Of a DNA stretch of 64,000 bases, positions 45,209 to 61,940 are shown piece after piece; position 1 is the stretch's first letter; every line of letters starts with the position of its first letter. This DNA is from Polaromonas sp. GTDB lineage: Bacteria; Pseudomonadota; Gammaproteobacteria; Burkholderiales; Burkholderiaceae_C. Location: the NCBI GenBank assembly GCA_030654695.1, contig JAURWY010000034.1:248001-312000 (forward strand), given 5' to 3'. The notes below the pieces were generated by a model. That model was not told the DNA's origin, did not search any database, and was given only the letters and a program-made list of their open reading frames with translations. The position numbers and the translations under genes are program-made.

Positions 45209-45260
45209 AGACGGTTGCAACAGGGGTCAAGCACCAAGCTTGACCGGCCCCCTACCGACG

Positions 45261-45294
45261 AAAAAAAAGCACCGAGCTGTTACGCTAAGTGCTT
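45261..45294 (-). terminator. Intrinsic terminator downstream of the tRNA-Val 3' fragment
   Basis: Minus strand AAGCAC-ttAGCgtaacaGCTcg-GTGCTTTTTTTT. Confidence 0.6.
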
Positions 45295-45310
45295 GATTTC
45301 CCTACCAATT

Positions 45311-59934: not shown

Positions 59935-60014
59935 CGTTAGCTCCAGTGAGATGGCCCTATTTTCCACTCAAGCACATGGCCTGTCTTGTGCAACCCATGG
60001 CGGCGCACCGTGTA

Positions 60015-60764
60015 TCAGCGACTTTGCACCGGGCATCTAAAGTCGTCATCCCAGGGAATCGGCAGCGCGTCGTCGGCTTTGCAGGCAGCATCCGTCGGCA
60101 GGCATTCTTTGCGCAGCTCCTTAAATTCCAAGCGCAAAGCAACCCGACGGCTTTTTTCCGGTTGATTGAGAATGGCCGAATTAAAGGACGACCCGCCCAC
60201 CAGAAACTGTTGGCGTATGGCCTTGCGGTCGTCTAGGCTGGGCGCGTCCGGTGCACTGGCGTCGAGCAGCACGCACAGTACGCGTTGGGAGCGCTCCAGG
60301 CTGAGGTTGAGGTTGTGCAGGTAACTGCCTTCCTGGCTGGCAAATCCCTCCACCACGTAACGGCGTAACCACTTGCGGCATTGGGGCGTGCGCGCCACGT
60401 CCAGCACCTCAGGAACAAAGGTCCGCAAAAACGCCATGCGGTCTTCGGATAACTGGTTGCCATTTTTTTTGAATTCAGCCAGGGGGCCGAAGTTGATGGT
60501 CTGCCCGTTGATTTTGACGCCGCGAAATTCGGGCCGCTGCGCCATTTTGTCCATATCGGCCATGCAGGTCATGATCGACTCTTCTCGGTCTTTGCGCATG
60601 TCCTCGCTCGAGCGCAAGCCCTGGGTTACCACCATCAAGGCCACTGCCATGGCGACCAGAAACAGCACCATCAAGGCCGTCATCAGGTCGGAAAAGGAAA
60701 TCCAGAACGGTTTTTCTGCCTCTTCTCTGGAGCGCCTGCGCCGTGGCGTTTGCAATCTAAACAT
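60015..60764 (-). CDS. zorB: ZorB-like MotB/OmpA-domain protein
   Basis: RRRSREEAEKPFWISFSDLMTALMVLFLVAMAVALMVV (MotB-type TM with D), OmpA-like VVEGFASQEGSYLHNLNLSLERSQRVLCVLL, FLVGGSSFNSAILNQPEKSRRVALRLEF. Resembles ZorB of Zorya systems from memory. Confidence 0.72.
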   Translation of the reverse strand: MFRLQTPRRRRSREEAEKPFWISFSDLMTALMVLFLVAMAVALMVVTQGLRSSEDMRKDREESIMTCMADMDKMAQRPEFRGVKINGQTINFGPLAEFKKNGNQLSEDRMAFLRTFVPEVLDVARTPQCRKWLRRYVVEGFASQEGSYLHNLNLSLERSQRVLCVLLDASAPDAPSLDDRKAIRQQFLVGGSSFNSAILNQPEKSRRVALRLEFKELRKECLPTDAACKADDALPIPWDDDFRCPVQSR

Positions 60765-60771
60765 GGTGCGT

Positions 60772-61752
60772 CTATTTCATCGCCGCCAGGTAAGCCGAGG
60801 TCTTGCGCAGTTCCGCCAGAACGTCCCGCATGACAGCGACTTGGGCTTCTGTCGCCACAACGAGGCGCTCCAAGCTTTCCTGCCCCGAGCCGGCTTCAAA
60901 CAGACTGTCAATCAGGTGTTGCAGGCTCTCCACCTGACTGTAGCGGGCACTGAGCAGCGCTTTTTCCATCCAGGTAAATAGCATGGCCAGTGCGATGGCC
61001 AACGCCGACACAAAAAAGGCCTGTCCCACGGTATGCACCAACAGGCTGAGCTGAGCTTGGGTGGTGGCGGGGTCCGACACATCAAAATGGATCAGGCCGT
61101 TAATCAGCCCCGAAAAAGTGCCAATAATCCCCAGCCCCGTCAGTATGCCGGGCACGTGCTTGTAAAAGTCAGAGCGCAAAGGTGAGTCCACCAACGCATA
61201 CTCCGAAAAAAAGGTTTCAGCTAGGGCCGATGCGCGCCAGCGCCGTACTCTGCTGCTGACGGGATCCGGTAACTCGTTGCGCTTGTCCAGCGCGTCGGAA
61301 TACTCGGCCCACAGGCTGGAGAGCTGCGGGTCGTCCGCCACTTTGCTTTCAATGTCCGACAAGTCCACCACCGCGCCGCCGGACTTGGCTTTCATCGCAT
61401 TGAAAAACAGTTCGGACAGCACACGCACACGCTCTTGCGGCCCAGAAACCATACGATCCGCTTGGACGCCGTCCCTGGGTACGTTCAGGCAATGGGCGTA
61501 TTGGGCCCATAGGTGCGCCATGCGCGGCTCGGTCATGACGTCGCTTTCCAGCTTGTCCAGATCGACCGCGCCATTTTTAGCGCCCGCTTTTAGGTCTTCC
61601 AATTTGGCCAGCACCCTGGCCAAGCGGCCTTTTAATTGCAGTGCGGGTATGACAAAACGGCTCAGGAAGTTAAGGGCGATGAGCGCTATGAGGCTGAGCA
61701 CCAGCATCAAGTGCCATTGCTGCCAAAACCCGGTTTGAGTGAGACTTGTCAT
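60772..61752 (-). CDS. zorA: ZorA-like MotA/TolQ/ExbB-type proton-channel protein, short C-terminal tail
   Basis: ALAETFFSEYALVDSPLRSDFYKHVPGILTGLGIIGTFSGLINGLIHFDVSDPATTQAQLSLLVHTVGQAFFVSALAIALAMLFTWMEKALLSARYSQVESLQHLIDSLFEAGSGQESLERLV. Start MTSLTQTGFW at 61752. Confidence 0.7.
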   Translation of the reverse strand: MTSLTQTGFWQQWHLMLVLSLIALIALNFLSRFVIPALQLKGRLARVLAKLEDLKAGAKNGAVDLDKLESDVMTEPRMAHLWAQYAHCLNVPRDGVQADRMVSGPQERVRVLSELFFNAMKAKSGGAVVDLSDIESKVADDPQLSSLWAEYSDALDKRNELPDPVSSRVRRWRASALAETFFSEYALVDSPLRSDFYKHVPGILTGLGIIGTFSGLINGLIHFDVSDPATTQAQLSLLVHTVGQAFFVSALAIALAMLFTWMEKALLSARYSQVESLQHLIDSLFEAGSGQESLERLVVATEAQVAVMRDVLAELRKTSAYLAAMK

Positions 61753-61813
61753 ACTAGACGTTCCGTTGTTGTTTGGCCGCCAATTCAGTGTAGCGGACTT
61801 GAAGTACAGACGT

Positions 61814-61847
61814 AAAAAAAGCACCTGACGAATACTCGTAAGTGCTT
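61814..61847 (-). terminator. Terminator downstream of tRNA-Lys
   Basis: Minus strand AAGCACTTACGAGTATTCGTCAGGTGCTTTTTTT. Confidence 0.6.
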
Positions 61848-61864
61848 GATTAAATTGAAGAATC

Positions 61865-61940
61865 TGGTGGGACGTGCGGGGGTCGAACCCACGACAAACG
61901 GATTAAAAGTCCGCTGCTCTACCAACTGAGCTAACGTCCC
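61865..61940 (-). tRNA. tRNA-Lys (TTT)
   Basis: GGGACGTTAGCTCAGTTGGTAGAGCAGCGGACTTTTAATCCGTTTGTCGTGGGTTCGACCCCCGCACGTCCCACCA; anticodon TTT. Confidence 0.95.

What the first reader, a model, noticed from the sequence alone, without database searches (positions are those of the whole stretch)
60015..61752. Orphan ZorAB-like module: a Zorya-type proton-channel pair without a recognisable ZorC/ZorD/ZorE effector
Seen directly: two adjacent same-strand genes encode an ExbB/MotA-type channel protein and a MotB/OmpA-domain protein. The MotB-like protein has the N-terminal EAEKPFWISFSDLMTALMVLFLV segment I associate with ZorB. Downstream is an unrelated alpha/beta hydrolase and upstream is tRNA-Lys, so no ZorC, ZorD or ZorE gene is in the window. 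Established knowledge: Zorya systems need ZorAB plus nuclease-type effectors, and the long cytoplasmic ZorA tail is part of signal transmission. Here only about 65 residues follow the last TM segment. Inference: this is a minimal or alternative ZorAB-derived system (different effector, non-defence role, or effector elsewhere), or a decayed Zorya.
Basis: partly seen in the sequence, partly recalled or inferred. Interest (0 to 1): 0.75.

Follow-up and report, generated by a model that had tools for sequence, protein, structure and literature searches.

The report
Short-tailed stand-alone ZorAB motor pair
Two adjacent genes encode the ion-driven motor of the Zorya anti-phage system, but in a conserved form that has lost the signalling tail and the effector genes and gained a duplicated motor-base segment, which suggests the motor does a job on its own.

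Summary
Window 60772-61752 (-) and 60015-60764 (-) encode a type I ZorA core and a ZorB; best matches are Zorya I, not MotAB, TolQR or ExbBD. No ZorC/ZorD match exists in the host genome (99.85% complete). The same architecture recurs in at least 27 GTDB loci of Limnohabitans, Rhodoferax and other Comamonadaceae: a ZorA of about 325 residues with 59-65 residues after TM3 (long-tail relatives 317-617) and a ZorB with intact motor aspartate and peptidoglycan motif. All form one ZorB clade nested among long-tail Zorya I systems. ZorA carries a tandem duplication of the ~55-residue cytoplasmic module between TM1 and TM2. The unit is exactly two genes plus ~50 bp upstream, found at about five unrelated chromosomal sites, with clean empty sites (ahcY-prfC) in relatives. 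dN/dS of 0.03-0.19 argues against decay. All 16 long-tail ZorA loci taken from the same family have zorC-zorD beside them. This is a new variant of a known kind: a stand-alone ZorAB motor. Its function (self-contained ion-flux defence, or an envelope role) is inferred and untested.

The parts
60772..61752 (-). zorA-like gene, 326 aa: TM1, duplicated cytoplasmic module, TM2-TM3 channel core, 62-residue tail
   Evidence: PADLOC ZorA1 7e-86; NCBIfam NF033916 2.6e-50 and NF041794 1.8e-44, both below their full-length cut-offs; PDB 8qyd/8qyk about 1e-34; AF2 model matches 8qyk/8qyd ZorA, E about 1e-11
61399..61566 (-). ZorA residues 63-118: first copy of the tandem cytoplasmic module
   Evidence: Copy 1 vs copy 2: hhalign probability 97.7%, E 2.2e-12; pair score 72 against a maximum of 46 in 1000 shuffles
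61204..61368 (-). ZorA residues 129-183: second copy of the module; canonical ZorA has one copy at this place
   Evidence: Alignment with long-tail ZorA shows a ~58-residue gap in all of them
60961..61167 (-). ZorA TM2-TM3 channel core, about residues 196-264 (HVPGILTGLGIIGTF ... FTWMEK)
   Evidence: Invariant columns across short- and long-tail ZorA
60775..60960 (-). ZorA C-terminal tail, 62 residues; canonical long-tail relatives have 317-617
60015..60764 (-). zorB-like gene, 249 aa: single TM plus OmpA-like peptidoglycan-binding domain
   Evidence: PADLOC ZorB1 2.6e-82; 8qyd ZorB 1.9e-42; Pfam MotB_plug 3.9e-6
60687..60689 (-). Codon of ZorB Asp26, the conserved ion-carrying aspartate
   Evidence: Invariant in 28 aligned ZorB; the equivalent aspartate is described as critical in known Zorya (PMC11890865)
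61753..61802 (-). Conserved ~50 bp upstream leader with a -10-like TACACT at 61787-61792
   Evidence: DNA homology with relatives at another locus runs 61802..about 60001 and stops there

Best explanation
This is a derived, stand-alone ZorAB motor. Anatomy, shown here (about 0.9 sure): a Zorya I-type ZorA/ZorB pair that, in one lineage of Comamonadaceae, lost the long ZorA tail and the zorC/zorD effectors, duplicated the cytoplasmic module between TM1 and TM2, and now persists and moves as a two-gene cassette under purifying selection. Mechanism, inferred from solved Zorya ZorAB: five ZorA surround two ZorB helices; ions pass by ZorB Asp26; ZorB's periplasmic domain grips peptidoglycan when the envelope is disturbed and opens the channel. 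Because the tail that recruits effectors is absent, the output must be something else. I think it most likely that the cassette is a self-contained envelope-stress or phage-injection responder whose output is the ion influx itself (local depolarisation or growth arrest), with the thickened cytoplasmic collar gating or coupling the motor. The confidence below is for anatomy and mechanism together.
For: Family. Intact motor and peptidoglycan features (Asp26, N151/L154/R158 invariant). No ZorC/ZorD in the genome. Long-tail relatives in the same family all carry zorCD. Fixed short tail. Duplication. One clade. Purifying selection. Two-gene cassette: homology limited to 61802..60001 against relatives at a different locus; empty ahcY-prfC sites in relatives without it. 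Patchy carriage (22 of 90 Limnohabitans-genus genomes have the short-tail form; 1 of 87 in the window's own genus) and several chromosomal sites, as expected of an accessory, defence-like module.
Against: In tested Zorya I and II, ZorAB alone or with the ZorA tail deleted gives no defence (PMC11890865), so an ion-flux-only defence has no precedent in these assays. The neighbourhoods are housekeeping or metabolic (ahcY, prfC, lon, clpX, tRNA genes), not defence islands. In Limnohabitans one site is kept across many species, which also fits a housekeeping role. No phage, expression or physiological data. The monomer model is of modest confidence (pLDDT 72.6).
Confidence: 0.42

Rival explanations
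1. A ZorAB motor recruited to a non-defence envelope task (Tol/Ton/Mot-like force transmission or cell-wall remodelling), with no role against phages.
For: Stable chromosomal location beside core genes in Limnohabitans, strong purifying selection; ZorAB-like pairs occur inside type III secretion clusters in Limnobacter and in one Limnohabitans-genus genome, so the module does seem to get reused outside Zorya.
Against: Only about a quarter of Limnohabitans-genus species carry it and there is no partner gene (no TolA/TonB/GldM-like third gene), whereas envelope machines are usually core and have partners.
Confidence: 0.33
2. A Zorya-like defence sensor that recruits an unlinked effector through the duplicated collar or the short tail instead of the long tail.
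For: The pair keeps every sensor and motor feature; the duplicated module could be a new docking surface. SNF2-type helicases are encoded elsewhere in most short-tail genomes, though not in the host at that threshold, and they look generic.
Against: ZorC absent from 20 of 21 short-tail genomes searched including the host, and the host has no ZorD match at 1e-20. The cassette is gained or lost alone, which disfavours a dedicated partner. Effectors of unknown family cannot be excluded.
Confidence: 0.17
3. Decayed Zorya I remnant on its way to loss.
For: Tail and effectors are missing; one relative (L039/L114) has a zorA split into two overlapping frames.
Against: Same lengths and duplication in at least 27 loci, dN/dS 0.03-0.19, conserved motor residues, presence at several sites.
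Confidence: 0.03
4. An ordinary flagellar MotAB, TolQR or ExbBD pair mis-seen as ZorAB.
For: Shares the MotA_ExbB and MotB_plug/OmpA folds.
Against: Pfam MotA_ExbB scores just under its cut-off while Zorya I models score 1e-82 to 1e-86; the best solved relatives are Zorya I, and TolQ/ExbB structures only match at E 0.015 or worse. The genome has eight other, stronger MotA_ExbB genes.
Confidence: 0.01

Closest known systems
Zorya type I ZorAB (E. coli, PDB 8qyd; Shewanella ANA-3, PDB 8vvn)
   Same: ZorA channel core and the single-copy collar region; ZorB over most of its length including motor aspartate and peptidoglycan motif; gene order zorA-zorB
   Different: Tail 62 residues here against several hundred; cytoplasmic module duplicated; no zorC or zorD
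Zorya type II (ZorAB + ZorE) and type III (ZorAB + ZorFG)
   Same: Shared ZorAB plan
   Different: Much weaker similarity (ZorA2 3e-11, ZorB2 3e-19, ZorB3 4e-5); no effector gene; one ZorE profile finds nothing in the genome (no working control)
TolQR / ExbBD / flagellar MotAB
   Same: Ion-driven motor fold; A and B genes adjacent
   Different: Only remote sequence similarity; Foldseek E 0.015 or worse; no TolA, TonB or flagellar partner genes
ZorAB-like pairs inside type III secretion clusters (L050/L051, L079)
   Same: ZorAB without adjacent zorCD
   Different: Different subfamilies (35-40% ZorB identity to the window's), longer tails, embedded next to sctJ/sctC

Membership tests
Zorya type I system | ZorB of type I family with motor Asp and peptidoglycan-binding domain | tested here: met
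   PADLOC ZorB1 2.6e-82; 8qyd ZorB; Asp26 and N151/L154/R158 invariant. Below the full-length NCBIfam equivalog cut-off (204 vs 400 bits)
Zorya type I system | ZorA channel core of type I family | tested here: met
   PADLOC ZorA1 7e-86 over the core; phmmer 8qyd; Foldseek
Zorya type I system | Long cytoplasmic ZorA tail (needed for defence, PMC11890865) | tested here: not met
   62 residues after TM3 against 317-617 in canonical relatives
Zorya type I system | zorC (EH-signature) gene | tested here: not met
   PDLC00613 finds none in the host genome while ringing in all six long-tail genomes searched as positive controls
Zorya type I system | zorD (SNF2 helicase / Mrr nuclease) gene | tested here: not met
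   PDLC00632 finds none in the host genome at 1e-20; positive controls E=0
Zorya type I system | Anti-phage activity | not testable with these tools
   needs an infection assay
Zorya type II system | zorE HNH nickase | tested here: inconclusive
   PDLC00646 finds none, but no control genome rang; none adjacent
5:2 ion-driven rotary motor | Three-TM A subunit with channel core plus single-TM B subunit with conserved Asp | tested here: met
   stoichiometry itself not tested
TolQR/ExbBD/MotAB | Closest similarity to these families, or their partner genes nearby | tested here: not met
   neighbours unrelated

The most novel reading that the evidence does not exclude
A complete, self-sufficient two-gene ion-driven machine: a Zorya motor that has shed its effectors and tail and uses a duplicated collar to turn envelope sensing directly into an output (ion influx or mechanical force). 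It would be either the smallest Zorya-type defence or a new envelope motor of freshwater Comamonadaceae.
Probability: 0.45. Interest if true: 0.75.

Novelty: new variant of a known kind. Interest (0 to 1): 0.6.

Why it matters
In published Zorya work ZorAB alone does not protect and the ZorA tail is essential. A natural, selected ZorAB lineage that lacks both the tail and the effectors asks directly what the motor does on its own, and offers a compact system (about 1.75 kb) in which sensing and ion flux can be separated from nuclease recruitment. It also shows that a lone ZorAB hit should not be annotated as a complete Zorya system.

Tried and rejected
Decay: rejected by architecture and dN/dS. 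Integration island with a tRNA-derived attachment site: no copy of the tRNA-Lys 3' end (12 nt or longer) elsewhere in the window. Third small gene in the cassette: DNA homology ends about 0-30 bp after the zorB stop and 50 bp before zorA. Foreign base composition: zorAB GC 0.577 against 0.567 for the window, no signal. Mobile carriers: no match in the phage collection, and plasmid matches are under 50% identical. The EH_Signature Pfam search had a silent control and was replaced by the PADLOC ZorC model with working controls. The tree script labelled L039 'long'; it is the frame-split short-tail copy, so the tree's two 'changes' reduce to one.

Full report
The two genes are real and placed as described. 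On the minus strand, zorA runs 61752-60772 (326 aa from the ATG shared with relatives) and zorB 60764-60015 (249 aa), separated by 7 bp. tRNA-Lys (61865-61940) and tcdA lie upstream, an alpha/beta hydrolase downstream. Profile searches put both in Zorya type I: PADLOC ZorA1 7e-86 and ZorB1 2.6e-82, Protein Data Bank Zorya I chains at about 1e-34 and 1.9e-42. General MotA_ExbB and OmpA models score marginally, and NCBI's full-length ZorA1/ZorB1 equivalog cut-offs are not reached.

The same form recurs. A scan of one genome per GTDB species returned 38 loci. In 27 of them ZorA keeps 59-65 residues after TM3 and the PGIL channel motif sits near residue 196. All but one of the 27 are labelled Comamonadaceae (Limnohabitans, Rhodoferax, Comamonas or unnamed), Burkholderiales or betaproteobacterium; the odd one is labelled Akkermansia (L042) and is probably a misbinned contig. 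Canonical relatives have that motif near residue 128 and 317-617 residues after TM3; Limnobacter (L050/L051) is intermediate at 146. An order-wide sample of 399 genomes gave 22 with ZorA matches; only the host and one other have the short form, the rest having open frames of 523-741 residues.

Residues 63-118 and 129-183 align with each other (VDL..ES..P...LWA.Y..L ... E.FF), with hhalign probability 97.7% and E 2.2e-12, and a pair score of 72 against a maximum of 46 in 1000 shuffles. Long-tail ZorA has one copy, so the short-tail clade shows a ~58-residue insertion there. An AlphaFold2 monomer (pLDDT 72.6) matches E. coli ZorA best (8qyk/8qyd, E about 1e-11), with TolQ/ExbB at 0.015 or worse.

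The effectors are gone. Each of the 16 long-tail ZorA loci taken from the same family has the zorC and zorD clusters directly after zorB (identities confirmed on one of them). Models for ZorC1 and ZorD1 find nothing in the host genome while ringing in all six long-tail control genomes. Of 21 short-tail genomes searched including the host, one (G542) has a weak ZorC-like match (9e-11) beside a ZorD-like helicase on a different contig from its zorAB; the helicase matches in the others cover mostly the SNF2 part and look generic. ZorE was not found, but that search lacked a positive control.

The pair is a self-contained cassette. Against relatives that carry it next to tRNA-Cys and lon, DNA similarity (82-86% in most) begins at window 61801-61803 and ends at about 60001-60019 (59984 in two), that is ~50 bp before zorA to about the zorB stop. 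That leader holds a conserved CAAGTCCGCTACACTGAA with a -10-like TACACT. Across the clade the pair occupies about five unrelated sites: tRNA-Lys/tcdA (window), tRNA-Cys/lon, ahcY, beside an rpoH-like sigma factor gene (L025), and another (L076). In Limnohabitans-genus genomes that lack it, ahcY and prfC are direct neighbours in six of the nine examined, whereas a carrier has ahcY-zorA-zorB-prfC. In the window's own genus yedE-tcdA-tRNA-Lys is conserved, but what follows the tRNA differs.

The clade is single and under selection. In a ZorB tree of 68 sequences all short-tail members fall together (98/97 support), with a long-tail, zorC-bearing sequence (L041) as nearest outgroup (100/97); the one 'long' label inside is L039, a frame-split short-tail copy. 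dN/dS over 13 genome pairs is 0.03-0.19, with some synonymous distances saturated. ZorB Asp26 and the OmpA-type motif residues are invariant. Carriage is patchy: 22 of 90 Limnohabitans-genus genomes hold the short-tail form and 1 of 87 in the window's genus (a second genome there has a canonical Zorya I).

Mechanism. Published work shows that ZorA and ZorB form a 5:2 ion-driven motor, that ZorB binds peptidoglycan, that ion flow and the ZorA tail are needed for defence, and that every component has to be present for protection (PMC11890865). The short-tail pair keeps the sensor and motor and lacks the recruiting tail and its recruits. I infer a stand-alone device whose output is the ion flow or the force itself, most likely as an envelope or phage-injection responder. 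A non-defence envelope role is nearly as likely. Which of these is true has not been tested.

Known or new. I found no paper in the held library describing this form; that library omits most subscription journals, and one Zorya paper I tried by DOI was not held. It should not be called a Zorya type I system, because three defining features were tested and not met. It is a variant of the ZorAB motor.

Noticed in passing
L050:8955-10732 and L051 (Limnobacter); L079:8360-10614 (G469, Limnohabitans genus): ZorAB-like pairs lie inside type III secretion gene clusters, near SctJ (7.6e-57, 5.5e-55) and SctC (3.9e-103, 1.6e-111) genes; a Zorya-type motor associated with a secretion system.
   Followed up: partly
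L043:8415-11178, L044, L046:8388-11247: Another reduced form: ZorA with a ~330-residue tail, ZorB, then a small protein (152-193 aa) which in L043 and L046 matches only the N-terminal quarter of ZorC; no zorD beside it.
   Followed up: partly
L047, L048: zorA-zorB-zorC without an adjacent zorD cluster.
   Followed up: no
L039:27-988 (same gene as in L114): Short-tail zorA split into two overlapping frames in one Limnohabitans MAG; assembly error or a broken copy.
   Followed up: no
G542:C11:5645-9033: ZorD-like helicase (1.8e-131) beside a weak ZorC-like match, away from that genome's short-tail zorAB; perhaps another EH-signature/SNF2 defence system.
   Followed up: no
window 61805-61851 and 45253-45298: 47-bp imperfect direct repeat (79%) lying between the zorA leader and tRNA-Lys; meaning unknown.
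   Followed up: no
L042 (labelled Akkermansia muciniphila): Contig carries the Comamonadaceae ahcY-zorAB type of neighbourhood; probably a misbinned contig.
   Followed up: no
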